Assembly: GCA_949752735.1 (NCBI GenBank)
Contig: OX457047.1
Span: forward strand, 13,973,674-14,037,673
Length of the DNA: 64,000 nucleotides
Origin: Lumbricus terrestris
Taxonomy: Eukaryota > Annelida > Clitellata > Crassiclitellata > Lumbricidae
Direction of reading: 5' to 3'
Part shown: positions 20,814 to 64,000 of the stretch, piece by piece
Position numbering within the stretch: position 1 is the stretch's first letter
How the letters are laid out: the number at the start of each line of letters is the position of its first letter
Position numbers and translations under genes: made by a program
Notes under the pieces: generated by a model
Told to the model about the DNA's origin: nothing
Database searches by the model: none
Seen by the model: only the letters and a program-made list of their open reading frames with translations

Positions 20814-21222
20814 CTTGCAATGCAAAACATGCTAAATGATTGCAATGCAAAACATGTTAAATGATTGCAATGCAAAACACGTTAAATGATTGCAATGCAA
20901 AACATGTTAAATCATTGCAATGCAAAACATGTGAAATGATTGCAATGCAAAACATGTTAAATGATTACAACACAAAACATGTTAAATGATTGCTATGCAA
21001 AACATGTTAAATGATTGCTATGCAAAACACGTTAAATGATTGCAATGCAAAACATGTTAAATGATTGCAATGCAAAACACGTTAAATGATTGCAATGCAA
21101 AACATGTTAAATGATTGCAATGCAAAACATGTTAAATGATTGCAATGCAAAACATGTTAAATGATTGCAACGCAAAACATGTTAAACGATTGCAATGCAA
21201 AACATGTTAAATGATTGCAATC
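20814..21222. repeat. 25-bp minisatellite, about 16 units
   Basis: Unit atgattgcaatgcaaaacat + gttaa, period 25 bp, with few substitutions (cac for cat, gcta for gcaa). It ends about 43 bp before the left LTR of the adjacent retrotransposon. The units contain the octamer-like word atgcaaaa. Confidence 0.95.
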
Positions 21223-21264
21223 ATCAGTAACGTTGTTCTCAGCAGATTTCAGGATATTTCAGGC

Positions 21265-22304
21265 TGTCACCGTACATTGAAATCTAGGTTTTAAAATCTA
21301 GTTTTAATAGGGAACTTTATGCTCAGAGGCCATTGGGTGATCAATATTAGAATGAGCTAGGACCTAAAACAAATGTAGCTGAGATTCGTTTAAAGATTAT
21401 ATTATAATAAAACAATATCAAATAGTAAAATACAATCAATAATCCTATCTACTTATTTGTGGCGTATTATCTAATAATATTATAGCTTGTTTCTTATCTT
21501 CCACGTTGGACTTTTCCAGCGTAGATGTAGAAGTTCTTCAGTTCGTATGGATTGGAATGAAGGTTCGAAGAGGAAGGAAGGTCACCTTCTTCTTGCTTGC
21601 CGTCGTTTCCAATTCTCTTCTGTAGCTGCGTAGACGGAGAATGCTGTAGCTGGCACAGCACTCTGTAGTTTCGTCCGCCTCGTTGTTTCTCCACAAGCAA
21701 CGGTAGCTTCTCGTCGCTTGCTCGTCTTGTTGTAGTTTCGCCCCTTTCTTCTGCCGTCGAACTCCAATCGCAATTGTAGTTCGAATTCGATCTTCTCCGA
21801 TGTCGATCGCAGTGCACTCGCAAGTGTCTCACCAAACTTCGCAAAGTTTCCGTACGACAAGCCCTGGTATCTCAATTCCCAAGGACTTATAGTCTCACCA
21901 GTGGGACAGGCCGACAACGTGTCGCCTTCCACACCCAATTCACCGTCAGATCTTCTGAATTACCGACAAGGAACGCCACAATCGTCAATGGCCGCCCTTG
22001 CTCAGAAATCTACGTCTTCTTCCTTCGCCATCTTTTCGCTGTCTAACTTTATCGTCTGCCGTTGTTGTCGTCTGCTCAAGTTTAACGCTGCTTTCCGCCC
22101 TTCGTTGTATTTCAATAATTGATGTAGCGCGTATTCAAGAATTGTTATAGCGCTATTATTATTATCTAACTTAATGCCACAAGTAATATTAATTATAATC
22201 TACAATACGCCACATATTGTCTAGCTTAATTCTTACCTATTTAATACTTATACAATGCATCATTTAATAGGTTTGTTTGATAAGAATAGCATTCTACCGC
22301 TACA
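21265..22304 (-). repeat. 3' LTR of the Gmr1-like element
   Basis: 1040 bp, indistinguishable by eye from the 5' LTR, which implies a very young insertion. It is followed (in element orientation) by the target duplication and then the 25-bp minisatellite. Confidence 0.95.
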
Positions 22305-22318
22305 AATGCCCCTCCTTC
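22305..22318 (-). promoter_or_regulatory. Polypurine tract of the Gmr1-like element
   Basis: On the minus strand gaaggaggggcatt directly precedes the 3' LTR, the position and composition expected of a plus-strand primer. Confidence 0.75.
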
Positions 22319-22461
22319 AAAAGACTGTTTACAGGCTTTAATAAACTCACCTACTTAACAAACTAACCTAGTAAACTAATTCACTTACTATACACGACAT
22401 GACAATTAATACACTTTACTCACTGGCTTACACTTCATCATTTACTTTATCTCAACTTATA

Positions 22462-25400
22462 CTACACAATCCCTCTACTTAAATAGTCGGACATAACATT
22501 TTCGGACCCTTTAATATATCTAATGTTAAAGGAATAGTTTTGGAGTGCCAAACTCCATCTCATCACCCTTGCATTTTTCATTCGACCCTCTTTCATATAT
22601 TGCAATCCGCAATGGTCTGTCTCAATTGTAAATGTCTTTCCACAAAGATATCGGTCGAACCTGCTTATACCCCACATGATTGCTAAGCACTCTCTCTCTT
22701 CCACAGAATATCTTCTCTCTCGCTCTAACAGCTTCCTGCTCGCATACGCTATGGGATGATTCGTCCCCTCGTACTGCTGCATTATCACACATCCGATTCC
22801 ACTTCCACTTGCATCAGTTTGTAGGATGAAATCCTTCTCTAAATTTGGAAGTCTCAGAATTGGTTCTTTCGCCAATTCGTTCTTCAACTTTGTAAAGCTA
22901 TCCTCCAGCTCTTCATTCCATTCTACTATCCCAGGTGCTATCTTCTTCGTTAAGTCACTTAACGGTGCCATAATTTCCGCACAATGTGGTATGAATTTCC
23001 GATAATAGTTTATCGCTCCAAGAAAACTCCTGACCTGTTTCTTTGTCTTTGGACGTGGCATGTCTACTATTTTATCCACTGATTTCTCCTTTGGACTTAT
23101 GTCATCCTTGTTCAACGTATGTCCCAAAAAGTCAATCTTTCCATATCCTATTGAACACTTCTTCGGCTTCAATGTCAAATTCGCTTGTCTCACTCTTTCG
23201 AAAAATATCTCCAATGTCTTCAAATGTTCTCTCCATCCTTTATTATGTGCTAGAATGTCGTCGACATAACTTTCAAGATTTTCTGTTCCTTGTAGAATCT
23301 TCCTGATTAAACGGTTGTAACTTGATGCACTATTGATCAATCCAAAAGGCATCACATTGAACTTGTATATCCCATTGGCACATACAAATGTAGTGTAGTC
23401 TTTCGATTCTGGACTCATAGGGATCTGCCAATAACCCTTGCAGAAATCGAACTTGCTGTAGATTCTACTACCACTCAACTTATTAAAAATATCCTCATTT
23501 GTCATCATAGGCTCAGGATCAAATATTGTAAGTTTGTTTAGCTGTTTATAATTGCAACACAGCCTATTGCTTCCGTCTGACTTCTTGACAACCACCAGCG
23601 GTGCTGCATAAGCTGCCTCTGATCTTTCTATCACCTTATTGTCTAACATCGTCTGGATCTCCTTATCTATTTCTTTTTGCAAATGGTATGGTGTTGGATA
23701 AGCTCTTTGTCTTACTGGCTCTTCACTCGTCAAATGTATCTCATGCTTCACTAAGTCTGTTCTCCCAGGCTTGTCTGTGAAAATGTCTTCATATTTCTTC
23801 AGTAGTTTCCTCATTTCTCCTTTTTGTTCTTCATCCAAATCAGGATTTATATCTACATCTTCATAGGTCTCTGTTTGTTCACTTACATATAAATCCAATA
23901 TTTCTTCTTCTTCATCTTCACCCACTTTCCCGTCATATACCACTGCTGAAATGTACGCTACAGTCTCGGCATCTTCTCTTTCGTGATATTTCTTTAATAT
24001 ATTAATGTGATATGTCTTTATCTTTCCTTTCTCGATTTCAACTCTGTAATCATAGTCTCCAATCTTCTCTTTCACAACATATGGCCCTTGCCACTTTACT
24101 AACATCTTGTTCTTACAACTAGGCAATAGTAACAACACCTTATCACCTATTTCCAACTTCCGGTATCTCGCTTTCCTGTCATAATACTTCTTGTTTTTAG
24201 CGTTCGCTTTGTGTATCGCTTTCTGCGCCATATCACAAGTCTCCTCAATCCTTTCTCTCAAATCCTGCATATACGTATATACGTCCTTCACTTCTTCTTC
24301 CACTGTCTCATTGGTCCATAACTCCTTCAGGATCTGCACTGGTCCTCTACACGACCTACCAAATATTAGTTCGAATGGTGTGAAACCGTGACTCTCATGT
24401 ACTGTGTCTCTCAACGCAAACAGTAATGGAGCTATATACCGATCCCATTCTTTCGCTTGTTCACCAATCAACTTCCTCAACGTCGCTTTGATAGTTCCAT
24501 TAAGCCGTTCTACACATCCATTGCCCATTGCATGGTAGGGACTCGTCATGGTGTGTTTTATCAATAGCATCTTATTTACTTCAGCCATGAGTTCAGAAGT
24601 GAACTGGCTTCCACGATCAGTATGGATCTTCTGAGGCACTCCCATACGACAATAAAATCCGAACAAAGCTTCTGCAACTTCCTCAGTACTAATTCCTTTC
24701 AATGGAATAGCTTCCGGATATCTTGTACTCAAGTCTATGATGGTCAATATATATCGGTAACCCCTTGCAGACATAGGGTTAACTTCTCCGATTATGTCTA
24801 TGCATATGTGTTTGAATGGTACATCTAATACAGGTAGATGACCCATAGGCGCCTTGTGGTTCACCTTCTTGTCAACTGACTTTTGACAAATGTCACAACT
24901 CAACACATATCTCCGTATATCTTGTCCTATTCCAGGCCAATAGAATTCATTTAGAATTTTATCATGTGTTTTCCTCATTCCTAAATGAGCCGACAACAAT
25001 GAATTATGTGCTACTGCTAACACTTTATCCCTCAATGGTTTAGGTACCATTAGTTGCCATTTCACCTCATCCTTCTGTACTTCTTTGTATCTTTTATACA
25101 ACAATCCCTTCTTTTTCACATATGGTTTATCTTCTATGTTGTCTTCGTTACCATCCCATTCAATTGCTCTTTCCATTTGTTTCGTCATAGTTTCATCTTG
25201 ACTCTGCAACTCCTGTATCTCTTTTACTGACACATTCAAGTTCGGCATCTCCTCCACTTTCAATGGTTTGTATTTTGCTACCTTTTTAGCTTCTGCCCTA
25301 GTCTCCACAACTGCTACTGTCATTAATTTTTTATCTTGATTCCTTATCACATTGTCAGAAAATCTCACTGTTTTCTTTGCACCAATAGGTCTTTCTTCAT

Positions 25401-27315
25401 GTTCTGTTTTTCTAATCAATATTCCTTTGTTTTCCACTTCAGTACATTTCTCAATTATTTCTTTTGGCTCATGATTTGTCACACTCTCAGTTCTTTCATC
25501 CTTAACCATGTACTTCAATCCTTTGATTTTCCCAATTATTACTGGCTTTATTGGCTGTTCCATCACCATCGCTTGTACTTCACCATTAAAATGTTCACTC
25601 TCAATATACACCTTAGCCAATGGGAAACATCTTAAACTCCCATCAACTAATACACAATGCGTTTCTTCTCCAGTCAACGCTTCTTCATTTATCAAAGAAC
25701 GTTTTACAATACAACAACTTGCGCCTGTGTCGTATAAGCATCCCACTGTGTTTCCATTAACTGTCACTTGGTATTCACTCTTGTCTTCAAGACTAATACA
25801 TCCATCATTGTCTTTTATCACCATTGCACTGGCTGCCATGTACATTGGTGGTATTTTACTATGTTCACCCTGTTTCATCTGTTGTTCTCCTCTTGTAATA
25901 TCAACCACTCTCTGTATTTCACTTTCTGGCTTAACCAAGTGTGCTCGACTTTCGAATATTTGTACTGCTGCTGCAGTGTGTTTAAATGTACCCCTGTTTT
26001 TCTTTGGGCATTGGTATGCCTTATGGTTCTGTTCTCCACAGAAAAAACAAGTAATCTTATGTCCAGTTGCAATTTCTCTTTCCCTGCTGAATCCTCGGTT
26101 TTGATGTGTACCCTGATTTATCTTCACATCACTTCTACTCCTGTTCAAATTGTACCCAGACTGTTCTTTGGGTCTGTGTTCGAACGGTCTACCGTTCAAC
26201 CTGTCACTATGAAATTTCACATCTGGTTTTACAGACTGCTCGCTGTACTTGTAACCGTGTGCTTCAATGTGTGATTCCGCACAAACTAACATGTCCTTCA
26301 AACTCATTTTACCCTTCTCTTTTATGAACATACGAAGTTCAGTACTGCACGTCAAGTAAAACTGATCTTTCAACAATAGATCTTCCACTCCTTCGTAAGT
26401 TCTTTCAAATCCCGCTTGTGCTAACCATTGCTGCATATACCTTCTCAATCTATGTACAAAACTAGAAGGTGTCTCTCCTGATTCCATTTTACTGGTTTTG
26501 AACTTGTTTCGATAACCACCTTCAGTAAGTTGAAATCTCTTCAACAGCTGAGTCTTCAAACACTCATAATCTTGCACTTCATCTGCAGACAACCTTTGGT
26601 ATACTTCCAGTGCTCTGCCTTCCAAATGTCTAGCTAGCGTCAACGACCAAACTTCTTTTTTAATTTCATACGCAACACAGGTTCTCTCGAATCTCAACAA
26701 GTAGGCATCTAAACAATCCTTGGACTCGTTAAATATAGGAAATTTGATATTCCTGATTCCTTTATTGTTTTCTCGGTGATCTCCCTGTTGTTGACCATCA
26801 CCGATCCTCATGTAGTCACTCTCGTGCTCTCGGTTTTGTTCCCCTCTTGAATCAATTTCACGCATTCTCACTTGTGCTTCAAGTCTCTTTATTTCCAACT
26901 GGTGTTCACGCTGTCCCCTCGCTTCAGTTTCAGCTGCTTCACGATTCAATCTGGCTTCTGATTCAGCGCTCCTAATTACTTCCAACTCCAGTTCAGCCTT
27001 CTTTGCTAGCATTGCAGCCTCTGTTTTTCTTGTTTCTATTTCAGCTTTTCTCGTTTCTGCTGCTGCTTCAGCTTCCACCTCTGCTTTTCTTGCTTCTATC
27101 TCAAGTCTCTTGACTTCTGCTGCTGCTTCAGCTTTTCTCGTCTCTGCTGCTGCTGCTGTTTCAGCTAATTTCATCTCTTTGGCGATCTCCCTCTCAGTCG
27201 CTCTATCTTGTCTCCACTCTGCCTGTCTTTCTTTGACAAAGGCACGTGTCTCGTCCCCTTCCATGTTCATCCGTTTGGCAATTTCTAACCAAGCTTCAAA
27301 ATCGCTGACAGACAT
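22462..27315 (-). CDS. Gag-protease-integrase-RT-RNase H polyprotein (Gmr1-type order)
   Basis: A 1617-residue single ORF starting at a true ATG. Domains in order: an alanine/glutamate/lysine-rich coiled coil (about 40-165); Gag capsid-like region (about 190-350); a CCHC zinc knuckle with CFFCGEQNHKAYQC (about 423-436); aspartic protease with DTGAS (about 529); integrase with an H-H-C-C finger (about 770-810) and a DDE core including HTDRGSQF (about 890); a GPY/F-like module (WQGPYVV, about 1075-1090); reverse transcriptase with YVDD (about 1350-1353); and RNase H (TDASGSG, about 1494). Canonical Ty3/gypsy elements place integrase last; here it precedes RT, as in Ty1/copia, while the RT sequence is gypsy-like. 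No frameshift separates gag from pol, so how the Gag/Pol ratio is set is unclear. No stops or missing motifs were seen. Confidence 0.95.
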   Translation of the reverse strand: MSVSDFEAWLEIAKRMNMEGDETRAFVKERQAEWRQDRATEREIAKEMKLAETAAAAETRKAEAAAEVKRLEIEARKAEVEAEAAAETRKAEIETRKTEAAMLAKKAELELEVIRSAESEARLNREAAETEARGQREHQLEIKRLEAQVRMREIDSRGEQNREHESDYMRIGDGQQQGDHRENNKGIRNIKFPIFNESKDCLDAYLLRFERTCVAYEIKKEVWSLTLARHLEGRALEVYQRLSADEVQDYECLKTQLLKRFQLTEGGYRNKFKTSKMESGETPSSFVHRLRRYMQQWLAQAGFERTYEGVEDLLLKDQFYLTCSTELRMFIKEKGKMSLKDMLVCAESHIEAHGYKYSEQSVKPDVKFHSDRLNGRPFEHRPKEQSGYNLNRSRSDVKINQGTHQNRGFSREREIATGHKITCFFCGEQNHKAYQCPKKNRGTFKHTAAAVQIFESRAHLVKPESEIQRVVDITRGEQQMKQGEHSKIPPMYMAASAMVIKDNDGCISLEDKSEYQVTVNGNTVGCLYDTGASCCIVKRSLINEEALTGEETHCVLVDGSLRCFPLAKVYIESEHFNGEVQAMVMEQPIKPVIIGKIKGLKYMVKDERTESVTNHEPKEIIEKCTEVENKGILIRKTEHEERPIGAKKTVRFSDNVIRNQDKKLMTVAVVETRAEAKKVAKYKPLKVEEMPNLNVSVKEIQELQSQDETMTKQMERAIEWDGNEDNIEDKPYVKKKGLLYKRYKEVQKDEVKWQLMVPKPLRDKVLAVAHNSLLSAHLGMRKTHDKILNEFYWPGIGQDIRRYVLSCDICQKSVDKKVNHKAPMGHLPVLDVPFKHICIDIIGEVNPMSARGYRYILTIIDLSTRYPEAIPLKGISTEEVAEALFGFYCRMGVPQKIHTDRGSQFTSELMAEVNKMLLIKHTMTSPYHAMGNGCVERLNGTIKATLRKLIGEQAKEWDRYIAPLLFALRDTVHESHGFTPFELIFGRSCRGPVQILKELWTNETVEEEVKDVYTYMQDLRERIEETCDMAQKAIHKANAKNKKYYDRKARYRKLEIGDKVLLLLPSCKNKMLVKWQGPYVVKEKIGDYDYRVEIEKGKIKTYHINILKKYHEREDAETVAYISAVVYDGKVGEDEEEEILDLYVSEQTETYEDVDINPDLDEEQKGEMRKLLKKYEDIFTDKPGRTDLVKHEIHLTSEEPVRQRAYPTPYHLQKEIDKEIQTMLDNKVIERSEAAYAAPLVVVKKSDGSNRLCCNYKQLNKLTIFDPEPMMTNEDIFNKLSGSRIYSKFDFCKGYWQIPMSPESKDYTTFVCANGIYKFNVMPFGLINSASSYNRLIRKILQGTENLESYVDDILAHNKGWREHLKTLEIFFERVRQANLTLKPKKCSIGYGKIDFLGHTLNKDDISPKEKSVDKIVDMPRPKTKKQVRSFLGAINYYRKFIPHCAEIMAPLSDLTKKIAPGIVEWNEELEDSFTKLKNELAKEPILRLPNLEKDFILQTDASGSGIGCVIMQQYEGTNHPIAYASRKLLERERRYSVEERECLAIMWGISRFDRYLCGKTFTIETDHCGLQYMKEGRMKNARVMRWSLALQNYSFNIRYIKGSENVMSDYLSRGIV

Positions 27316-27632
27316 ACTTACTGTCTTACTTGCTCACTAGCAACTTATGACAAAATTATTGGCAACAATGTGCGCTATTTAAATTTCTAACAAATAGAAA
27401 TTGTTCAACTCTGCAAAGTGTCAATTCAGTTCCACAACAACAACTAATCTCTAATAGTTCATACAACCTATTGCAGTATCTTCAATCTACAATTTCAGAT
27501 TTAGTCTCTAACAATCTCCTAGCTATAATTGTTCAAAGCTTTTCTAATACTGTTCGAAAGACAGTAATCTTTACTGACTTAAATCTTTACTGAATTAAAT
27601 CCTTACTGAATTAAATCTTTACTGACTTTTAT

Positions 27633-27650
27633 CCCGGGCATGGGCACCCA
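27633..27650 (-). promoter_or_regulatory. Primer binding site of the Gmr1-like element
   Basis: On the minus strand TGGGTGCCCATGCCCGGG begins four bases after the 5' LTR. It starts with TGG, as expected for pairing to a tRNA CCA end, and its complement looks like a T-stem plus acceptor strand. The primer tRNA is not identified. Confidence 0.6.
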
Positions 27651-27654
27651 CTCG

Positions 27655-28694
27655 TGTCACCGTACATTGAAATCTAGGTTTTAAAATCTAGTTTTAATAG
27701 GGAACTTTATGCTCAGAGGCCATTGGGTGATCAATATTAGAATGAGCTAGGACCTAAAACAAATGTAGCTGAGATTCGTTTAAAGATTATATTATAATAA
27801 AACAATATCAAATAGTAAAATACAATCAATAATCCTATCTACTTATTTGTGGCGTATTATCTAATAATATTATAGCTTGTTTCTTATCTTCCACGTTGGA
27901 CTTTTCCAGCGTAGATGTAGAAGTTCTTCAGTTCGTATGGATTGGAATGAAGGTTCGAAGAGGAAGGAAGGTCACCTTCTTCTTGCTTGCCGTCGTTTCC
28001 AATTCTCTTCTGTAGCTGCGTAGACGGAGAATGCTGTAGCTGGCACAGCACTCTGTAGTTTCGTCCGCCTCGTTGTTTCTCCACAAGCAACGGTAGCTTC
28101 TCGTCGCTTGCTCGTCTTGTTGTAGTTTCGCCCCTTTCTTCTGCCGTCGAACTCCAATCGCAATTGTAGTTCGAATTCGATCTTCTCCGATGTCGATCGC
28201 AGTGCACTCGCAAGTGTCTCACCAAACTTCGCAAAGTTTCCGTACGACAAGCCCTGGTATCTCAATTCCCAAGGACTTATAGTCTCACCAGTGGGACAGG
28301 CCGACAACGTGTCGCCTTCCACACCCAATTCACCGTCAGATCTTCTGAATTACCGACAAGGAACGCCACAATCGTCAATGGCCGCCCTTGCTCAGAAATC
28401 TACGTCTTCTTCCTTCGCCATCTTTTCGCTGTCTAACTTTATCGTCTGCCGTTGTTGTCGTCTGCTCAAGTTTAACGCTGCTTTCCGCCCTTCGTTGTAT
28501 TTCAATAATTGATGTAGCGCGTATTCAAGAATTGTTATAGCGCTATTATTATTATCTAACTTAATGCCACAAGTAATATTAATTATAATCTACAATACGC
28601 CACATATTGTCTAGCTTAATTCTTACCTATTTAATACTTATACAATGCATCATTTAATAGGTTTGTTTGATAAGAATAGCATTCTACCGCTACA
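27655..28694 (-). repeat. 5' LTR of the Gmr1-like element
   Basis: 1040 bp, offset by exactly 6390 bp from the 3' LTR, with no mismatch noticed. Open frames of 116-118 codons on its minus strand recur in both LTRs but resemble no known protein. It would carry the promoter of the element; a TATA box cannot be assigned with confidence. Confidence 0.95.
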
Positions 28695-28886
28695 CAGGCA
28701 CATGACAAATCATCTAGGCCTACTGGCCATCTTTTCCTAATTATTCAGTGGCAGGGCAGTCAGTGAACAGTGGGCATCGGTCAGTTGTGACTAATGGTCA
28801 GTTGTGTCATTATTCTGAGGGTCAGATTCATTGATCTGAGCCACTCTGGACATTGCCACAATGGTCAACCGTTAATCAAAAGTCTT

Positions 28887-44850: not shown

Positions 44851-46294
44851 GCGTTTTGGGAAAAGCTACAAAATTATACTTAGTTTTATCCATGTTGGCC
44901 ATAACGGTTATTTAACTCTATGCTGCACCAGAGCGAGGCTGCAGACATTACGCCAGCGTGACGTGTGACCTTTTAGATGACGTGGCGAAAGTGTGGGCGC
45001 CGCTGATTGGCCAAGAGCGACGCGTGACCTACAAACAGCGGTAAAAGGTCGCTTCCTATTGGCTGTTGGACCAATCTAGGTCAGTAGGACGAAGAGACGC
45101 GAAGAGGTGAAACCGACGAGAAAGACTAGGCCATCTTTTTGAATAGAAATTCGTTTAAAACTAAGTTTTCGGGCATCTAAATTAATAAGGAAGTCAACTA
45201 AATTAATAGATAATAAAGTAAACGACCGCTGGTCGCCTCCGGTGGAAGGAGAACGTCGAAATAAGCAAAACCGCTTAGGAATCAGGGAAGTAGAAATAAC
45301 TTAAAGTGTAGCGTGCTGAATCTGTAAATGAATGAATGGTTAAAATGGCCGGAACGCGTTGATATAGATTATATAGCGCATTACAGGTAGAGCGAAGGAT
45401 AAATTAGCGCTTGTATTAAGAAGCGTGAATATATTGAAAGAATTGCTAGAAGTAGCCTTGCGATATAACTGTTGCTGTGGTCGTGGTAAATTAGTGCAAA
45501 GTGTTGATGTTAATTCGTTGCTTTCGTGTAACTGATTAATAGCGTGATTTGACCTTCTGCAGTAGTTAAGGAAATAAGAACTGAACTGATAGCCTAGTTA
45601 TATACAGGAGCATAAGATATAGGTATCAAGTAATGCAGAGTGTGTAATAACCAGCCATAAATGCTGTGTAGTGTTAGGAATACTTTGTGTTGAACTGATA
45701 AGTATTATAGGCAGAATTGTATTTGCACAGGTTGCTGCCAATTGTATATTAATTAAGTAGTAGTGAAGGAACAAATAAAGTGTTGCATATTGAACTAGAA
45801 TTGAAGGTGATTCACTGACTGACTTGCAATTAGTTGTAAAACAGAATAATCCCATGTCTCGTGCCAGCTCTTTGAAGGGGGACGCCCTAGAGGAATCGGA
45901 TGATTCGGAGGGAGGGGGGTCAGTCAGTAGCGATGAGAGATTGATAGAGCGCCAGATATATCCAGCCAAATACTCTCCGCCACCTCTTCAGGAGTTCGAG
46001 TCCCTTTCGCCCAAAGCTGCCGTGGGGATAACGAACTCAGACGAGCACCGGAAAGAGGGTGCTGTCGCGCGTCGACAAACCGCCGCGGAGACATGTCCTG
46101 TAGGCCCTGGTACCCATGAAAGAAGAGAATCTGGACGTTCCTCCCTGTCGTTCACACTTGAGGTTCCCGTAGGTGGTTCCCTGTCGCCCCGGCAGTACGC
46201 CGCCACACTAGGGGAGGGGGGCGAAAGTAAGCGAGTAAGTGGGGCATCCCTTGCAAGCGCTTCCGGTCCCCTAGCGGTTAGGGCGGGCGTAACA
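44847..46294 (+). repeat. 5' LTR of element A (contains the gag start)
   Basis: 1448 bp. The first part carries CCAAT-box words on both strands (attgg 45006 and 45058, ccaat 45071), a TATATAG near 45370 and AATAAA at 45774-45779. The last 441 bp are the opening codons of gag. Confidence 0.93.
45006..45376 (+). promoter_or_regulatory. Candidate LTR promoter: CCAAT cluster and TATA-like box
   Basis: Inverted and direct CCAAT boxes at 45006-45010, 45058-45062 and 45071-45075, and a TATA-like TATATAG at 45370-45376. With the AATAAA at 45774 this fits a U3-R-U5 layout in which transcription starts downstream of 45376. Inferred from motifs only. Confidence 0.4.
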
Positions 46295-48709
46295 AATGGT
46301 ACCAGAAGTGGGGTAGAAGTGGAACAAGGGGAACAGGTGGAACCAAGAAAATTTGGAAGGACAGAATTTCCTGGAGAGAGAGAGAAGTGGGAAGGCGAAG
46401 AAATGGCTTATTATGGCGCTAGACCCAAGTGTCCTTCGGACTACCCTGTTACCGCAGCAATTGATGCGGGTTTTGATTTTGAATTTTACATGAGAGATAA
46501 ACAAGCGAGGTTGGTTAACAGAAAGCTTGGAGGAAATAATTATGAAAGTGAAGGTTCGGAGGTAACTGATCTGCGACCCTTTCATAACGTTCTGTTGCAT
46601 CCTAATATGTTGAATTTGGATAAAGGTTGTGTTGGGATCCTTGCTAACTCTGAGTGTATAGTTTCAGATATGGAGGATGGGGATTCGGCGCTGCCGAGGG
46701 AACTGGGACTCCCGACTTCGGATGCACATCCCGGGCACCCAACCCTAGTCCACCCTCGGGCTACCACCTTCCCACCACCGCCTCCCTCGTCGCACCCTTT
46801 CGCCGTCCGAGCCCCTCCTACTCCGACCCCGAACACAATCGGTGGTGTCGTCAAGTCGAATCCTTGGGTGAGAACCGTCACCCCGGTCACAGCCTCGGTG
46901 TGCAAACTGTCCGTATCCGTCGTGTCGTCGACTCAGTCAATCATGTCGACCTTGTCCTCGTCGTTGAAACCACAGGTTACACAAAGTTCCGCCTACCTGC
47001 CCTCGAACCTTGGCCCTCCCGCTTACCTGTCAGGTTGTCAACCAACAACCGCTCTGTGTCGGCCAGCTTCCGCCTACGATGAACGATTCTGGGTAACCAC
47101 ACGAGCAGCCCAGAACAACCTGGAAGCGAAGTTCCATGTTGTGTCTACATCCGGGAGCGAAAGCAGTCAGTTCCAGTTCGAACAGTATGCTGAACCGCCT
47201 ACAGCTGAACCTCAACCAACGATCCAAGGTCGTTTTCAGCCGAGTACGACTCCATCCTCGTCGGTCACTGTGCAGTCCCAATCACGCGTGAGCAGAACTG
47301 TTGATTCGAAATCCAGACAGTATATGAAATTGGACAGGTACAATGGAAAGACATCGGTCGAAGCTTTCCTAAAGAAATTCGAGATCTGTGCGAACAGTAA
47401 TGGTTGGACAGATGGGGAGAAATTCGCCCAGCTGACCTGTGCCCTGACAGAGCCAGCTGATCAGCTGCTCTACGAGTTCGACTCCGAGACCATAGCATCC
47501 TGGTCTGACCTGGTTGATCGTCTACGCCTGCGGTATGGAAGCTCCGATCAAGCCGTCCTCTACCAGACCCAATTGAACACACGACGTCAAAAGATGGGTG
47601 AAGACCTCAGCTCTGTAGTACGAGACATTCGACGAATCATGATCCTGGCGTTCCCTGGTCCCACCTCGGTGCACAGTGAAGTCATAGCGATTCGTGCCTT
47701 TCTCGACGCCCTGCGAGACAGAGACTTAGCCATGAAGGTTCGTGAGAGAGAACCTACCACCTTGGACCATGCTTATAAGACTGCCATGCGTTTAGAGGGT
47801 TACCGTCAAGCAGATGATGGTAACCTGGGCCGCAATGAACATCGACCCAGTCGGGTAAAAACTGTAACGGAAGTAGACTCTGCCCCTGCTGACAGTCAGA
47901 GACAATTCCAAGAAATCGTGTTGAATAAGCTGGAGCAGATGGAAGCAAGAATGAACGCCATATGCAGCAGCCCCTCCGGCGATGGACAATTTCGCCCCTG
48001 GCGGCCCCGAAGTCAGGTTCCACCCAGGGCGGAACCTACCTTCGGAAACCAGCGAACAGTTAACCGCTCATCAAGGTTCCCCGCGGGTGACCGTCGCTGC
48101 TTCGAGTGTCAACAACCCGGTCACTTTGCTCGAGTTTGTCCCACTCGTTACCACGACTCGACGCCGGAGGAGGAGGGAGAAGGACTGGAACACAATGAAG
48201 CACGCCAGGTTCAGCAGAAGAGCCGCCCTGCGCAGTGTCGTCGAGTCATCGTCTCAACCGCTGTCCCGGTGTCGTCGAACTGCAAAGTAAAAGAAAAGCC
48301 TTCAGTGAGGCGTTCGAATCCAAAAGTCGCTGGAAAATCCTGTGTTATCCCACGAGCATCGGTCGAAGCGGAAGCGCTACCACCAGAAGGAGTTCCTGTT
48401 CCAGCCAGTCCTGGGGGGAAGATCGACCAGCCCAAGGTGGTGGCCCGAGTCCCGCCTCGTCGGGGTGTGCATCTGCCCTCCCACTTCGCCAGCCCTACCT
48501 GCGGTGGAATGTGGCCTCTACCGACTTTCGTCGGGCTTCGTGGTGCTAACATGCATCCTTCCTCTGGTCTCGCCGCCTATCGAGACAGAGAGAGGAAACG
48601 CACCAGAGTTCCGCAGAATCGTCACTTTCTGTCGAGAGGCACCATTCCTCACCATCGCTGGCGAGATCACCAAGAAAGCTTCGTGCAGCCTGGGGGGTAT
48701 AACGAGTAA
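45854..48709 (+). CDS. Gag polyprotein of element A, starting inside the 5' LTR
   Basis: 951 residues from the first ATG (45854); the open frame extends ten codons further up only via a TTG. Residues 1-147 are encoded by the LTR and are Ser/Glu/Pro-rich and probably disordered. The frame then reads through the primer binding site. Residues about 490-680 form a Ty3/gypsy Gag capsid-like region (LDRYNGKTSVEAFLKKFE, RLRYGSSDQAVLYQTQL). A CCHC knuckle follows at about 749 (CFECQQPGHFARVC). The first roughly 700 residues are nearly identical to element B. The nucleocapsid and tail then diverge abruptly, and the last codons plus the following DNA match the end of the B pol again. No protease motif. 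The tail (about 770-951) is unrecognised and Pro/Arg-rich. Confidence 0.9.
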   Translation: MSRASSLKGDALEESDDSEGGGSVSSDERLIERQIYPAKYSPPPLQEFESLSPKAAVGITNSDEHRKEGAVARRQTAAETCPVGPGTHERRESGRSSLSFTLEVPVGGSLSPRQYAATLGEGGESKRVSGASLASASGPLAVRAGVTNGTRSGVEVEQGEQVEPRKFGRTEFPGEREKWEGEEMAYYGARPKCPSDYPVTAAIDAGFDFEFYMRDKQARLVNRKLGGNNYESEGSEVTDLRPFHNVLLHPNMLNLDKGCVGILANSECIVSDMEDGDSALPRELGLPTSDAHPGHPTLVHPRATTFPPPPPSSHPFAVRAPPTPTPNTIGGVVKSNPWVRTVTPVTASVCKLSVSVVSSTQSIMSTLSSSLKPQVTQSSAYLPSNLGPPAYLSGCQPTTALCRPASAYDERFWVTTRAAQNNLEAKFHVVSTSGSESSQFQFEQYAEPPTAEPQPTIQGRFQPSTTPSSSVTVQSQSRVSRTVDSKSRQYMKLDRYNGKTSVEAFLKKFEICANSNGWTDGEKFAQLTCALTEPADQLLYEFDSETIASWSDLVDRLRLRYGSSDQAVLYQTQLNTRRQKMGEDLSSVVRDIRRIMILAFPGPTSVHSEVIAIRAFLDALRDRDLAMKVREREPTTLDHAYKTAMRLEGYRQADDGNLGRNEHRPSRVKTVTEVDSAPADSQRQFQEIVLNKLEQMEARMNAICSSPSGDGQFRPWRPRSQVPPRAEPTFGNQRTVNRSSRFPAGDRRCFECQQPGHFARVCPTRYHDSTPEEEGEGLEHNEARQVQQKSRPAQCRRVIVSTAVPVSSNCKVKEKPSVRRSNPKVAGKSCVIPRASVEAEALPPEGVPVPASPGGKIDQPKVVARVPPRRGVHLPSHFASPTCGGMWPLPTFVGLRGANMHPSSGLAAYRDRERKRTRVPQNRHFLSRGTIPHHRWRDHQESFVQPGGYNE
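46297..46314 (+). promoter_or_regulatory. Primer binding site of element A, tRNA-Leu type
   Basis: TGGTACCAGAAGTGGGGT begins two bases after the LTR. Its complement matches the 3' end of animal tRNA-Leu(UAA), as I recall it, with one mismatch. The site lies within the gag reading frame and encodes part of N-G-T-R-S-G. Confidence 0.72.
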
Positions 48710-51339: not shown

Positions 51340-52787
51340 TGTAGCGTTTTGGGAAAAGCTACAAAATTATACTTAGTTTTATCCATGTTGGCCATAAAGG
51401 TTATTTAACTCTATGCTGCACCAGAGCGAGGCTGCAGACATTACGCCAGCGTGACGTGTGACCTTTTAGATGACGTGGCGAAAGTGTGGGCGCCGCTGAT
51501 TGGCCAAGAGCGACGCGTGACCTACAAACAGCGGTAAAAGGTCGCTTCCTATTGGCTGTTGGACCAATCTAGGTCAGTAGGACGAAGAGACGCGAAGAGG
51601 TGAAACCGACGAGAAAGACTAGGCCATCTTTTTGAATAGAAATTCGTTTAAAACTAAGTTTTCGGGCATCTAAATTAATAAGGAAGTCAACTAAATTAAT
51701 AGATAATAAAGTAAACGACCGCTGGTCGCCTCCGGTGGAAGGAGAACGTCGAAATAAGCAAAACCGCTTAGGAATCAGGGAAGTAGAAATAACTTAAAGT
51801 GTAGCGTGCTGAATCTGTAAATGAATGAATGGTTAAAATGGCCGGAACGCGTTGATATAGATTATATAGCGCATTACAGGTAGAGCGAAGGATAAATTAG
51901 CGCTTGTATTAAGAAGCGTGAATATATTGAAAGAATTGCTAGAAGTAGCCTTGCGATATAACTGTTGCTGTGGTCGTGGTAAATTAGTGCAAAGTGTTGA
52001 TGTTAATTCGTTGCTTTCGTGTAACTGATTAATAGCGTGATTTGACCTTCTGCAGTAGTTAAGGAAATAAGAACTGAACTGATAGCCTAGTTATATACAG
52101 GAGCATAAGAGATAGGTATCAAGTAATGCAGAGTGTGTAATAACCAGCCATAAATGCTGTGTAGTGTTAGGAATACTTTGTGTTGAACTGATAAGTATTA
52201 TAGGCAGAATTGTATTTGCACAGGTTGCTGCCAATTGTATATTAATTAAGTAGTAGTGAAGGAACAAATAAAGTGTTGCATATTGAACTAGAATTGAAGG
52301 TGATTCACTGACTGACTTGCAATTAGTTGTAAAACAGAATAATCCCATGTCTCGTGCCAGCTCTTTGAAGGGGGACGCCCTAGAGGAATCGGATGATTCG
52401 GAGGGAGGGGGGTCAGTCAGTAGCGATGAGAGATTGATAGAGCGCCAGATATATCCAGCCAAATACTCTCCGCCACCTCTTCAGGAGTTCGAGTCCCTTT
52501 CGCCCAAAGCTGCCGTGGGGATAACGAACTCAGACGAGCACCGGAAAGAGGGTGCTGTCGCGCGTCGACAAACCGCCGCGGAGACATGTCCTGTAGGCCC
52601 TGGTACCCATGAAAGAAGAGAATCTGGACGTTCCTCCCTGTCGTTCACACTTGAGGTTCCCGTAGGTGGTTCCCTGTCGCCCCGGCAGTACGCCGCCACA
52701 CTAGGGGAGGGGGGCGAAAGTAAGCGAGTAAGTGGGGCATCCCTTGCAAGCGCTTCCGGTCCCCTAGCGGTTAGGGCGGGCGTAACA
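51340..52787 (+). repeat. 3' LTR of element A
   Basis: Carries a second copy of the first 147 gag codons (ATG at 52347). Here they run out of the element into TA repeat and flanking DNA, stopping at 52967. Confidence 0.93.
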
Positions 52788-52870
52788 TATATATATATAT
52801 ATATATGTAATACATCTCAATGCGCGCGACTGCTTTACGCTTTGCTCATCCTTTGCATTAATTGTGTTGG

Positions 52871-53087
52871 CAGTGGCGGCGCCAGGATTTCAGATTTGAG
52901 TGGGCCCATAGGAAATTTCCCATTTTCATTTTTTCATCCGCTAAAATTTCTGACGACCTTTTTTTAGTCATCCGGTCAAAAATCGTGAAAATATTGCATG
53001 TAAAAAACACCCGGATGGCCTTATTTTAGGGGAGGCTTAACCTTTGAAAGGGGAGCCTAGCCCCCTAGCCCCCCAGCGCCGCCACTG
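52871..53087. mobile_element. hAT-like MITE (cagtggcggcg family), 217 bp
   Basis: Termini cagtggcggcgc and gcgccgccactg, with 8-bp near-identical duplications tgtgttgg (52863-52870) and tgtgctgg (53088-53095). The interior shares ctgacgacctttttttagtc with the copy at 10817, in the opposite orientation. Confidence 0.88.
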
Positions 53088-53600: not shown

Positions 53601-53998
53601 GTATGGAGAGTTCTTCTTCACCGCACATTTGTCCTTTGGATCTGTCCTCCTCTCAAGTTCAGTCGTCTGCTACGAATGGAAATCTGAGTTCAGTCGCCAT
53701 TGGTCTGGTGACTTCCGGTCCATAAACCACGAACTCAGGTTCCTCTTTGGTCAGAATCGTTGAACTGAAATCCTGTTCATGGCATTGCAAGTCACAGTGG
53801 ATTGTCATTTGGCTGATCTTGGAGTGAAGCGGCTGACCTTAGGTTGACCACGAATAGGCTGACTTTGGAATACAGCGATTGACCCTGGGATGACCTCGAG
53901 CTGAAGGATCTGGTTGCTGATCAGGATATAACCGGTTGAAAAACGGGTTTGCTTACTGCAGAGGCTGCACGATGACACAATATTCTAGTGATGCGTAG
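53601..53998. other. Short non-repetitive spacer before element B
   Basis: No gene or repeat recognised, apart from loosely recurring gctgac words between 53810 and 53900. The five bases before element B are cgtag; the other flank lies outside the window, so the duplication cannot be checked. Confidence 0.4.
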
Positions 53999-55446
53999 TG
54001 TTACGCCCGCCCTAACCGCTAGGGGACCGGAAGCGCTTGCAAGGGATGCCCCACTTACTCGCTTACTTTCGCCCCCCTCCCCTAGTGTGGCGGCGTACTG
54101 CCGGGGCGACAGGGAACCACCTACGGGAACCTCAAGTGTGAACGACAGGGAGGAACGTCCAGATTCTCTTCTTTCATGGGTACCAGGGCCTACAGGACAT
54201 GTCTCCGCGGCGGTTTGTCGACGCGCGACAGCACCCTCTTTCCGGGGCTCGTCTGAGTTCGTTATCCCCACGGCAGCTTTGGGCGAGAGGGACTCGAACT
54301 CCTGAAGAGGTGGTGGAGAGTATTTGGCTGGATCTATCTGGCGCTCTATCAATCTCTCATCACTACTGACTGTCCGCCCTCCCTCCGAATCATCCGATTC
54401 CTCTAGGGCGTCCCCCCTCAAAGAGCTGACACGAGACATGGGATTATTCTGTTTTACAACTAATTGCAAGTCAGTCAGTGAATCACCTTCAATTCTAGTT
54501 CAATATGCAACACTTTATTTGTGCTTTCACTACTACTTAATTAATATACAATTGGCAGCAATCTGTGTAAATACAATTCTGCCTATAATACTTATCAGTT
54601 CAACACAAAGTATTCCTAACACTACACAGCATTTATGGCTGGTTATTACACACTTTGCATTACTTGATACCTATCCTTTATGCTCCTGCATGTAACTAGA
54701 CTATCAGTTCAGTTCCCATTTCCTTAACTACTGCAGAAGGTCAAATCACGCTATTAATCAGTTACAACGCAAGCAACGAATTAACATCAACACTTTGCAC
54801 TAATTTACCACGACCACAGCAACAGTTATATTGCAATGCTACTTCTATCAACTCTTTCAATATATTCACGCTTCTTAATACAAGCGCTAATTTATCCTTC
54901 GTTCTACCTGTAATGCGCTATATAATCTATATCAACGCGTTCCGGCCATTTTAAACATTCATTCATTTACAGATTCAGCACGCTACACTTTAATTTATTT
55001 CTACTTCCCTGATTCCTAAGCGGTTTTGCTTATTTCGACGTTCTCCTTCCACCGGAGGCGACCAGCGGTCGTTTACTTTATTATCTAATAATTTAGTTAA
55101 CTTTCTTATTAATTTAGCTGCCCGAAAACTTAGTTTTAAACGAATTTCTATTCAAAAAGATGGCCTAGTCTTTCTCGTCGGTTTCACTCTCTTGCGTCTC
55201 TTCCTCCTACCGACCTAGATTGGACCAACAGCCAATCGGAAGCGACCTTTTACCGCTGTTTTTAGGTCACGCGTCGCTCTTGGCCAATCAGCGGCGCCCA
55301 CACTTTCGCCACGTCATCCAAAAGGTCACACGTCATGCTGGCGTAATGTCCGCAGCCTCGCTCTGGTGCAGCATAGAGTTAATTAACCGTTATGGCCAAC
55401 ATGGATAAAAATAAGTATAATCTTGTAGCTTTTCCAAAACGCTACA
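53999..55446 (-). repeat. 3' LTR of element B
   Basis: 1448 bp, ending complementary to TGTAGCG. It contains a copy of the gag start (ATG at 54439, minus strand), which runs out into the flank. Diverged by a few percent from the LTRs of element A. Confidence 0.93.
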
Positions 55447-57493: not shown

Positions 57494-59341
57494 TTACTCT
57501 CTATACCGCCGAGGTGGCACAATAGTGCGATGCGGTCTCAAGGGAGTCATCGCCTCTTCCTCATCAGGGACTTCGACCTGTGCCAGGGTGTCAAGGTCAA
57601 CTGGTCCGATGGTATCGGAACTCGGGCTCACATCCCAATCGTTAGGGGTCTCCCCGCTGTATAGCTTGAGTTTATCCACATAAACTAGTTTCGGTTGGGC
57701 TCGGGCCGACTTTTGGACCTTGTAAAGGACCGGACTCAGTTGTTCCAGGACACGATACGGTCCGGTGTACAGTTTACTCCATTTTTCCTTGATCCCTGAC
57801 CGTCGTCGCGGGTAGAAATACCAGACCCAGGACCCTATGGCGAAGGTAGCTGGTCTGACTCTCATATTGTACCGTGCTTCTCGGGTAGTGGCTTGGCGCT
57901 GCATAAATTTTCGAGCCAGTGCAAAGTTTATTTGTACATTTTCCATTTGACTAGCGACAAAATCATCAACATTCGACATGGCATTCATAATTTGCACATC
58001 ACCAAGCACTAGATCAATGGGCATGCACAATTCTCTCGCTAGGAAAAGGCGATTTGGAGTGAAGCCGGTACTCTCACTCTCGCTGGCACGGTAGGCGGCG
58101 AGGACGTAGGGGAGATGCACATCCCAATCCCGCTGGTTTTGGGCTACCACCTTTCCCAGAAGGGCATTCAGGGTACGGTGGAACCTCTCGACAGCTCCGT
58201 TAGTGCTCGGTTTGTAGGGTGAGGTGCGGACTTTGTCGATCTTGAGGAGTCTGCACAGGTCTTTGAACAGAGTTGCCTCAAAGCAGGGTCCTTGGTCCGT
58301 CAGAATCTGGCGTGGACAACCGAAACGGCAGAAGACTTCTTTCACGAGGACTCGTGCCACAGTGGCGGCTTCCTGATTACGGATCGGATGGGCCTCAGCC
58401 CAACGCGAGAAGTGGTCGACTGCGGTCAGTATGTAGCGGTATCCAGTGCTGGAGGTCGGGTGTGGGCCGGTAATATCCACTCCCAGGCACTCCATGGGTG
58501 CTCCTACGGTCATTGTTTGCAGTCGCCCTTGCCTGGGCGGTTTTCCTCTGAAATATTGGGCGCAGGGGTTGCATCGCCGTAGTGCTACGCGAACGTCTTC
58601 TCTCCACCCAGGCCAGTAGGCTCTTTTCTGGAGCTGAGACAGGGTACGTCGGATGCCCATGTGGCCTCCCGTGATCCCCTCATGAGCCATTTGAATCAGT
58701 GTCGAACGGCGATGAGGCGGTGGAATTAACTGGTAGTTGGCGACCTTGCTGTCTTCCGCGTCGAGCCAAGCCCGGACTAGTAGTTCCTCTTTCAATTCTA
58801 GTTGCGGCCACTGGGAGACTAACGTTTTTACTGTTCCGCTCCGATCCCTCGTCTCAGCAAACGAAGGTGGATCGTCCGAGTCACATTTCTTTTGAATCAC
58901 CCAGCCCAGGTCAGTATCCGCTCTTTGCTCATCTCGTAAGGTGTTTTTGCTCCAATCTTCCGGCAGAGTCATTCCTCCCCGTTCGATATCTCGCAATTCC
59001 CGAACGGCTTGTACCTGGTGGGGAAGGCGGGACATAGCATCTGCGTTTTGATGTGCCGACCCGGCTCGGTGTTGAATGTCAAATTCGAATTCTTCGGTAA
59101 TGGTCAGCCACCTCGCCTGCTGTCCGATCGGAAGGGGCGTTCTCCGCAGCCATTGTAACGCTGAATGGTCAGTTCTGAGTAGGAAACGTCTCCCCAACAA
59201 ATACTGTCGATAGGTTTTCAGAAAATGGATGATCGCGAGGAGTTCCCTTCTGGTTACGTCGTAGTTCTGTTCCGCCTTCGAACAGAGCCGACTCCCATAG
59301 CAGACTACCCGCTCCTGTCCTTCTTGAACTTGGGATAGAAC
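57494..59341 (-). pseudogene. RNase H C-terminal part and integrase of element B, out of frame with upstream pol
   Basis: Continues pol in another frame. It begins with the rest of RNase H (ELLAIIHFLKTYRQYLL, LLRTDHSALQWL, AGSAHQNADAMSRL). Integrase follows: an H-H-C-C finger (HEGITGGHMGIRRTL ... CNPC) and a DDE core with VDITGPHP, LTDQGPCF and NGAVERFHRTLN. A GPY/F module (YTGPYRVLEQL) and the C-terminus RRYRE complete it. No initiator ATG is expected, because this is the tail of a polyprotein. Confidence 0.9.
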
Positions 59342-63558: not shown

Positions 63559-64000
63559 GGGATTATTCTGTTTTACAACTAATTGCAAGTCAGTCAGTGA
63601 ATCACCTTCAATTCTAGTTCAATATGCAACACTTTATTTGTGCTTTCACTACTACTTAATTAATATACAATTGGCAGCAATCTGTGTAAATACAATTCTG
63701 CCTATAATACTTATCAGTTCAACACAAAGTATTCCTAACACTACACAGCATTTATGGCTGGTTATTACACACTTTGCATTACTTGATACCTATCCTTTAT
63801 GCTCCTGCATGTAACTAGACTATCAGTTCAGTTCCCATTTCCTTAACTACTGCAGAAGGTCAAATCACGCTATTAATCAGTTACAACGCAAGCAACGAAT
63901 TAACATCAACACTTTGCACTAATTTACCACGACCACAGCAACAGTTATATTGCAATGCTACTTCTATCAACTCTTTCAATATATTCACGCTTCTTAATAC
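63118..64000 (-). repeat. 5' LTR of element B (partial)
   Basis: 883 bp visible, corresponding to 53999-54881. The remaining roughly 565 bp lie beyond the window. Includes the first 147 gag codons and the AATAAA (complement near 63634). Confidence 0.92.

What the first reader, a model, noticed from the sequence alone, without database searches (positions are those of the whole stretch)
22462..27315. Intact Ty3/gypsy element with integrase upstream of reverse transcriptase
Seen: in one 1617-codon ORF the integrase motifs (H-H-C-C finger, HTDRGSQF, GPY/F) precede RT (YVDD) and RNase H (TDASGSG). Known: this Ty1/copia-like pol order in a gypsy-type RT defines the Gmr1-like group, first described from cod and then other deuterostomes. 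Inference: this is an apparently complete, possibly active member without a gag-pol frameshift, so its Gag:Pol ratio must be set another way.
Basis: partly seen in the sequence, partly recalled or inferred. Interest (0 to 1): 0.8.

Follow-up and report, generated by a model that had tools for sequence, protein, structure and literature searches.

The report
Earthworm Gmr1-like retrotransposon with companion family
The window holds a young, complete jumping element of a known kind (integrase before reverse transcriptase), and the same earthworm genome carries a companion that lost the integrase and part of the reverse transcriptase and gained an unknown protein segment instead.

Summary
Minus strand 22462-27315 is one 1617-aa ORF in the order capsid, zinc knuckle, protease, integrase, reverse transcriptase, RNase H, inside a 7430-bp element (21265-28694) with two identical 1040-bp LTRs and a 5-bp target duplication. 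The host is Lumbricus terrestris. The element fits the Gmr1-like group: gypsy-type RT, integrase upstream, SCAN-like capsid; no named Gmr1 sequence could be put in the tree. The single gag-pol ORF is ordinary for the group: 103 of 121 proteins (own counted) have all five domains in one ORF. Gmr1-like elements are already reported from crustaceans and an annelid, so the window copy is a new member of a known kind. Copia-like splicing is weakened: the inner sense strand has no pyrimidine-rich 3' splice site. Unexpected, outside the window: a module X, found at 150 scored places, replaces integrase and N-terminal RT behind gag-protease in all six copies inspected, whose LTR pairs are near-identical. 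X is open in 25 of 25 sampled copies (about 3 stops per copy expected at random) and is shared by two lineages. I read this as a non-autonomous companion moved in trans; that it supplies extra Gag is untested.

The parts
21265..28694 (-). Complete Gmr1-like LTR retrotransposon, 7430 bp
   Evidence: LTR pair at offset 6390; TGT..ACA ends and TSD
27655..28694 (-). 5' LTR, 1040 bp
   Evidence: identical to the 3' LTR over 1040 bp
21265..22304 (-). 3' LTR, 1040 bp
28695..28699 (.). Target-site duplication CAGGC, upstream side
21260..21264 (.). Target-site duplication CAGGC, downstream side
27631..27650 (-). Putative primer binding site, 4 nt after the 5' LTR; tRNA-Pro is my guess (recalled, host tRNA not checked)
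   Evidence: variable among copies, begins TGGG[T/G]GCCC
22305..22318 (-). Polypurine tract GAAGGAGGGG plus CATT before the 3' LTR
   Evidence: identical in 20 of 21 sequences, window included
22462..27315 (-). Single gag-pol ORF, 1617 aa
26260..26514 (-). Capsid C-terminal, SCAN-like
   Evidence: Pfam PF02023, 30.3 bits against cut-off 27; best PDB hit the ZNF174 SCAN domain, E 0.058, weak
26002..26052 (-). CCHC zinc knuckle
   Evidence: motif; Pfam 17.2 bits, below its cut-off 20.8
25531..25785 (-). Aspartic protease, DTGA
   Evidence: RVP 16.8 bits, below its cut-off 20.7; motif
24877..25047 (-). Integrase H2C2 zinc-binding domain
   Evidence: PF17921 67.8 bits
24532..24819 (-). Integrase catalytic core
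   Evidence: PF00665 54.2 bits; PFV and Ty3 integrases in PDB
23983..24120 (-). Integrase C-terminal GPY/F-like domain
   Evidence: WQGPYVV; PF24626 and PF22938 below cut-off
23113..23589 (-). Reverse transcriptase, YVDD
   Evidence: PF00078 97 bits; best solved relative is Ty3 RT
22534..22920 (-). RNase H
   Evidence: PF17917 122.7 bits
23360..25022 (-). Stretch that corresponds to what module X replaces in derivative L034 elsewhere in the genome (no X was found in the window)

Best explanation
The window holds a young, structurally complete Gmr1-like Ty3/gypsy retrotransposon of the earthworm Lumbricus terrestris. Shown from sequence: one gag-PR-IN-RT-RH ORF, identical LTRs, target duplication, PBS-like and PPT sites, many near-identical copies, strong purifying selection. 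Inferred: it moves by ordinary LTR retrotransposition, with one Gag-Pol polyprotein cut by its protease, and Gag excess is probably made without frameshift or splicing, most simply by processing and unequal turnover of Pol parts. Also shown: the genome holds a high-copy derivative, gag-PR-X, which lacks integrase and N-terminal RT and carries an unknown R/N/S/W-rich coding module X. Inferred: it is copied in trans by the autonomous elements; co-packaging and template switching re-fuse X to helper flanks.
For: Anatomy. Gypsy-type RT closest to Ty3 among solved structures. Group trait: 119 of 121 (own counted) and 93 of 98 proteins IN-first; of 120 proteins listed for a conventional-order query 76 are RT-first, 34 have several RTs and were not classified, 10 have no detected IN, none is IN-first; quick RT-RH and IN trees put the 55 IN-first rows on one side of a branch. 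Activity: 20 fetched copies, 18 with both LTRs, LTR pairs 99.5-100% identical with 11 exactly 100%, 5-bp TSD in 12; pN/pS 0.01-0.06. Against splicing: 0 acceptors at 13 of 18 pyrimidines or more in the inner sense strand, against 9.3 and 18.3 per same length in the rest of the window. Derivative.
Against: No RNA, protein or insertion-polymorphism data. No named Gmr1 sequence was in the tree, and other gypsy clades (Mag, Osvaldo, CsRN1) were not included as named references. Copies were picked by best RT match, so young and intact ones are over-represented; even so, the list holds broken frames (down to 466 aa) and one copy (L012) has a stop in RT-RNase H. The acceptor scan is a crude consensus, and base composition alone predicts only 0.6 sites. 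X has only moderate constraint (pN/pS 0.49). Gag and RNase H constraint in derivatives may simply mirror the helpers: L037 differs from two autonomous copies at 1 of 882 nt. That flanks track a helper is shown for L034 and L037 only; derivatives L039, L072 and L073 differ from those two autonomous copies at 27-33 of 882.
Confidence: 0.85

Rival explanations
1. Gag excess comes from a spliced, Gag-only subgenomic RNA, as in Drosophila copia and barley BARE1.
For: One-ORF elements with this solution exist (PMC3735527 abstract and introduction). Donor-like words occur, two of them just before the start codon, each present in 19 of 20 fetched copies.
Against: No pyrimidine-rich acceptor in the inner sense strand. 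I did not search systematically for genomic copies with an intron-like clean deletion.
Confidence: 0.1
2. The integrase-first order is a rearrangement or assembly artefact of this copy.
For: None found.
Against: Same span open in many copies and in relatives from echinoderms, bivalves, a brachiopod and unnamed sources.
Confidence: 0.01
3. The gag-PR-X copies are only decayed deletion relics with an accidental open frame.
For: RT N-terminus and integrase are gone; the RNase H frame has no obvious start; X pN/pS is 0.49, not very low. The X search is translated and so favours intact X, and it scored only 150 of 427 candidates.
Against: LTR pairs 99.5-100% identical in 6 of 6 and TSD in 4 of 6; 124 of 150 X places in open frames of 900-1100 aa; module open in 25 of 25, tail included, which was not in the query, against about 3.1 stops per copy expected for random placement (copies are related, so not independent).
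Confidence: 0.2
4. The element is a Ty1/copia element or a retrovirus rather than a Ty3/gypsy element.
For: Copia-like domain order.
Against: RT best matches Ty3 (E 1e-83); integrase has a GPY/F-like end; 157 nt between the ORF stop and the 3' LTR leave no room for env.
Confidence: 0.01

Closest known systems
Gmr1-like group of Ty3/gypsy (Goodwin and Poulter 2002, seen only as a citation; fish Gmr1-4 in PMC11117352)
   Same: Integrase upstream of RT, gypsy RT and RNase H, SCAN-like capsid, one fused gag-pol ORF of similar length (1506-1634 aa in the fish table)
   Different: Longer LTRs (1040 bp against 337-518 bp in the fish table); host is a clitellate annelid; companion gag-PR-X family
Annelid LGF3 of Lamellibrachia (PMC8220671, passages)
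   Same: Gmr1 clade, annelid host
   Different: No sequence at hand to compare; companion not mentioned in the passages that I saw. A polychaete survey (PMC8556966, passages) says that this clade was not found in its own data
Plant TR-GAG (PMC8704663, passages) and the BARE1/BARE2 pair (PMC3735527, abstract and introduction)
   Same: Non-autonomous LTR elements that depend on a partner; a TR-GAG keeps gag and has been seen to transpose
   Different: The earthworm derivative keeps gag, protease and an RT-tail/RNase H frame, and adds module X; animal Ty3/gypsy lineage

Membership tests
Gmr1-like Ty3/gypsy | Ty3/gypsy-type RT and RNase H | tested here: met
Gmr1-like Ty3/gypsy | Integrase upstream of RT | tested here: met
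Gmr1-like Ty3/gypsy | Gypsy-type integrase with H2C2 finger and GPY/F-like end | tested here: met
   H2C2 and rve above cut-off; C-terminal models below cut-off but motif present
Gmr1-like Ty3/gypsy | Capsid related to the SCAN domain (PMC4592553, PMC3424704, passages) | tested here: met
   PF02023 above cut-off; PDB hit only E 0.058
Gmr1-like Ty3/gypsy | Gag and Pol fused in one ORF (fish Gmr, PMC11117352) | tested here: met
Gmr1-like Ty3/gypsy | RT groups with Gmr1 against other gypsy clades | tested here: inconclusive
   Groups with IN-first proteins incl. S. purpuratus, but no named Gmr1 or other clade references were at hand; quick tree only
Ty1/copia | Copia-type RT | tested here: not met
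Retrovirus or errantivirus | env gene downstream of pol | tested here: not met
   157 nt between ORF stop and 3' LTR
TR-GAG (for the derivative) | Encodes Gag only | tested here: not met
   Derivative also keeps protease, X and an RT-tail/RNase H frame

The most novel reading that the evidence does not exclude
A two-component animal retrotransposon. The autonomous Gmr1-like element makes Gag-Pol at 1:1 from one ORF, while abundant gag-PR-X companions with the same capsid supply Gag without Pol in trans and so help to set the Gag:Pol ratio. X is a selected protein, possibly RNA- or particle-binding, handed between helper lineages by template switching.
Probability: 0.25. Interest if true: 0.75.

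Novelty: new variant of a known kind. Interest (0 to 1): 0.5.

Why it matters
The window copy by itself only extends a known group to an earthworm. The companion family matters more: how one-ORF elements of this group make enough Gag is, as far as I saw, not settled, and the companion makes a concrete answer testable with RNA data already listed for this species. It would also be an animal counterpart to plant TR-GAG elements with an added, apparently selected, protein of unknown origin.

Tried and rejected
Antisense ORF 25508-26104 (198 aa): the longest antisense open stretch was matched or exceeded in 41 of 500 synonymous-codon shuffles, so chance. Rfam scan of the window: no family at gathering score. 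ARAGORN: no tRNA in the window. The host's tRNA-Pro could not be checked, since those pattern searches did not complete. My first motif count of domain order was too strict and was replaced by profile searches. I first read gag and RNase H constraint in the derivatives as their own; one search shows that the flanks of L034 and L037 match autonomous copies, so I withdrew that. In one search the two lineages are one codon out of register, so only within-lineage differences from it are used. A note says 13 of 18 LTR pairs are identical; the table gives 11. The same note counts 17 of 20 open frames; one search gives 18 of 20 at 1543 aa or more. The careful RT tree did not finish; the quick tree is reported. 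One row (P0148) was dropped from the integrase tree as too short.

Full report
OBSERVATION. The minus strand carries one ORF at 22462-27315, 1617 aa, ATG start. Pfam orders its parts as SCAN-like capsid, zinc knuckle, aspartic protease, integrase (H2C2, core, C-terminal), RT, RNase H, and the named motifs are present in that order. Length 7430 bp.

HOST. The window is C13:13973674-14037673 of a genome of 1,056,305,194 bases in 331 contigs. The mitochondrial contig C331 is 15,933 bp, and I judge its COX1 to read best with the invertebrate mitochondrial code. The published Lumbricus terrestris assembly spans 1056.5 Mb in 361 scaffolds, longest 98.9 Mb, N50 56.6 Mb, mitochondrion 15.93 kb (PMC10799228, passages); our C1 is 98.895 Mb and C9 56.589 Mb. 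The sequence counts differ (361 and 331). I take the host as L. terrestris.

KINSHIP. The RT is nearest, among solved structures, to Ty3; the integrase to PFV and then Ty3. A protein search with the RT-RNase H part gave 2516 proteins, of which the best 120 were listed. With profile searches of five pieces, 119 of 121 (these 120 plus the query) have integrase before RT and 103 of 121 have all five parts in one ORF. Of 120 proteins listed for the window's other gypsy element (7332 found) none is integrase-first: 76 RT-first, 34 with several RTs and not classified, 10 without detected integrase. A third query from a sea star added 98 new proteins, 93 integrase-first and 5 with several RTs. A quick ML tree of 91 RT-RNase H rows (55 of 119 eligible integrase-first, 35 of 75 eligible RT-first, Ty3) separates the two kinds with SH-aLRT 100, and so does an integrase tree of 89 rows. 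Both sets were chosen by similarity to a query, so this shows that the order is inherited together with RT and integrase, not that all integrase-first elements are one clade. Named hosts include sea urchins, sea stars, sea cucumbers, a crinoid, scallops, oysters and a brachiopod; a pseudoscorpion appears only with gene models that hold several RTs.

LITERATURE. The first Gmr1-like elements in protostomes were reported from crustaceans (PMC3587641, passages), and one annelid family is in print (PMC8220671, passages; PMC8556966, passages, counts Gmr1 among clades present in several phyla). In tetraodontiform fish all Gmr and Mag elements have gag and pol fused (PMC11117352, sections 3.2 and 4.3; table passage: 1506-1634 aa). 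The SCAN domain is said to derive from a Gmr1-like capsid (PMC4592553, PMC3424704, passages), which our capsid match fits. A search for earthworm, LTR retrotransposon, gypsy and Lumbricus together found no paper in the open library; most subscription journals are not in it.

ACTIVITY. A scan of the genome with an RT piece scored 121 of 4597 candidates, all 98-100% identical, with open frames from 466 aa to full length. Of 20 copies fetched from the top of that list, 18 have both LTRs, LTR pairs are 99.5-100% identical (11 of 18 exactly), and 18 of 20 have an open frame of 1543 aa or more. For 12 of 18 a 5-bp duplication was found; four of these needed the LTR end moved by 14-15 bp, and one (L020) failed the LTR-end check because of an indel. 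Two neighbours, L016 and L017, share an LTR. Among copies pN/pS is 0.06 in capsid, 0.01 in protease, 0.02 in integrase, 0.02 in RT-RNase H; L012 has a stop there. Selection for best RT match biases this sample to young copies.

GAG EXCESS. The ORF has no frameshift. A spliced gag RNA, as in copia and BARE1 (PMC3735527, abstract and introduction), would need a 3' splice site. The inner 5350 nt of the sense strand are 37% A, 25.6% G, 13.6% C; no AG is preceded by 13 or more pyrimidines of 18 (two by 12), against 9.3 and 18.3 per same length on the two strands of the rest of the window; shuffles of the same composition give 0.6. So composition explains the lack, and the scan is crude. Post-translational turnover, mentioned in the same introduction, needs no special sequence and stays the simplest reading; it was not tested.

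COMPANION FAMILY. A scan with the capsid piece scored 150 of 3353 candidates: 99 lie in open frames of 1500 aa or more, 27 in frames of 960-1120 aa, 24 others. Fetching six of the 960-1120 class (L034-L039) showed in all six that integrase and N-terminal RT (element 3673-5335 in L034) are replaced by another stretch, 1.35 kb in L034. It codes for a 210-aa R/N/S/W-rich segment X, then a remnant of the integrase-RT linker and a new tail of about 60 aa, then about 0.4 kb without long ORF and a frame for the RT tail with YVDD plus RNase H. X has no Pfam, PDB or viral-contig match. A scan with X scored 150 of 427 candidates: 149 have no stop inside X, identity 85-100%, and 124 of 150 lie in open frames of 900-1100 aa, 25 in shorter ones, 1 in a longer one. 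By comparing the two lists, at least 24 of the 150 capsid places have X 1.4-1.9 kb downstream, and of the 18 places (window's own included) whose 166-aa capsid piece is identical to the window's, 7 are such derivatives. The six fetched derivatives have LTR pairs 99.5-100% identical, and for 4 of 6 a 5-bp duplication was found.

SWAPPING OF X. L034-L036 are about 99% identical to the window element outside X, one of them (L035) with an insertion in the LTR. L037-L039 are only about 85% identical in gag and 72-78% in the parts of the LTR that align, yet X and tail are 94-97% identical between the two lineages. Silent divergence is 0.06-0.09 in the module and 0.39-0.42 in gag-protease for the same pairs. 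The 5' joint differs between the lineages, and at the L034 joint helper and X donor share the 7 nt GATAAAG, in frame. In two cases the flank matches an autonomous copy closely: window against L034 differ at 2 of 882 nt, and L037 against L070 and L071 (open frames 1623 and 1672 aa) at 1 of 882; L039, L072 and L073 differ from L070 and L071 at 27-33, so for them no close helper was found among the few fetched. Four other full-length copies, of which 3.5 kb each was fetched, are of the window's lineage (93.8-97.1%) and show no X. This fits template switching between co-packaged RNAs, which was not observed directly.

SELECTION ON X. All 25 sampled module copies are open over the 312 codons fetched, with near-identical last residues; the stop after them was seen in the six of L034-L039. 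The tail was not in the query. Placing the observed substitutions at random would give 3.1 stops per copy on average over 23 copies, though copies are related. pN/pS is 0.51 in X, 0.44 in the linker remnant and 0.45 in the tail (24 copies): constrained, but loosely. The capsid of the window element differs from L037 and L039 by 2 amino-acid changes against 29 and 35 silent ones over 170 codons, so the particles' building blocks are nearly the same.

VERDICT. The window element is a sound, recently active-looking member of the known Gmr1-like group. The companion is the part that a specialist would not expect. Its trans-mobilisation is suggested by the lack of integrase together with young LTR pairs; its role as a source of Gag is a hypothesis.

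Noticed in passing
57497-63618 (-): Second Ty3/gypsy element with the usual order (RT, RNase H, then integrase), split between two frames; open stretches at 45794-48706 (+), 52287-52964 (+) and 53924-54499 (-) begin with nearly the same residues.
   Followed up: partly
Source genome C5:36073714-36097750, C9:39150336-39176705, L016/L017: Tandem arrays with exact spacing (five X-carrying units 5851 bp apart; five full-length units 6372 bp apart), as if units share LTRs.
   Followed up: partly
27631-27650 and copies L011-L030: The LTR-end-to-primer-site string varies between young copies (9 forms in 20 readable sequences of 21), odd for a site normally copied from one tRNA.
   Followed up: no
27313-27329: Two splice-donor-like words run up to the start codon (GTAAGACAGTAAGTATG); each 9-letter word is present in 19 of 20 fetched copies.
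   Followed up: no
L034:3189-4121, L037:3003-3893: RT-tail plus RNase H frame without obvious start; only two of the rows with such short frames show an inner stop (C16:2265567, C14:29394996).
   Followed up: partly
L032/L033 (C318:34170-40154): A 44.7-kb contig holds a second, split COX1-like sequence: nuclear copy or foreign mitochondrion.
   Followed up: no
20815-21221: 25-bp tandem repeat, 16 units, just beside the insertion site.
   Followed up: no
44-2240: 51-bp tandem repeat, 43 units, open in frames on both strands.
   Followed up: no
Source genome C5:16629457: One copy lies in an open frame of 2971 aa.
   Followed up: no
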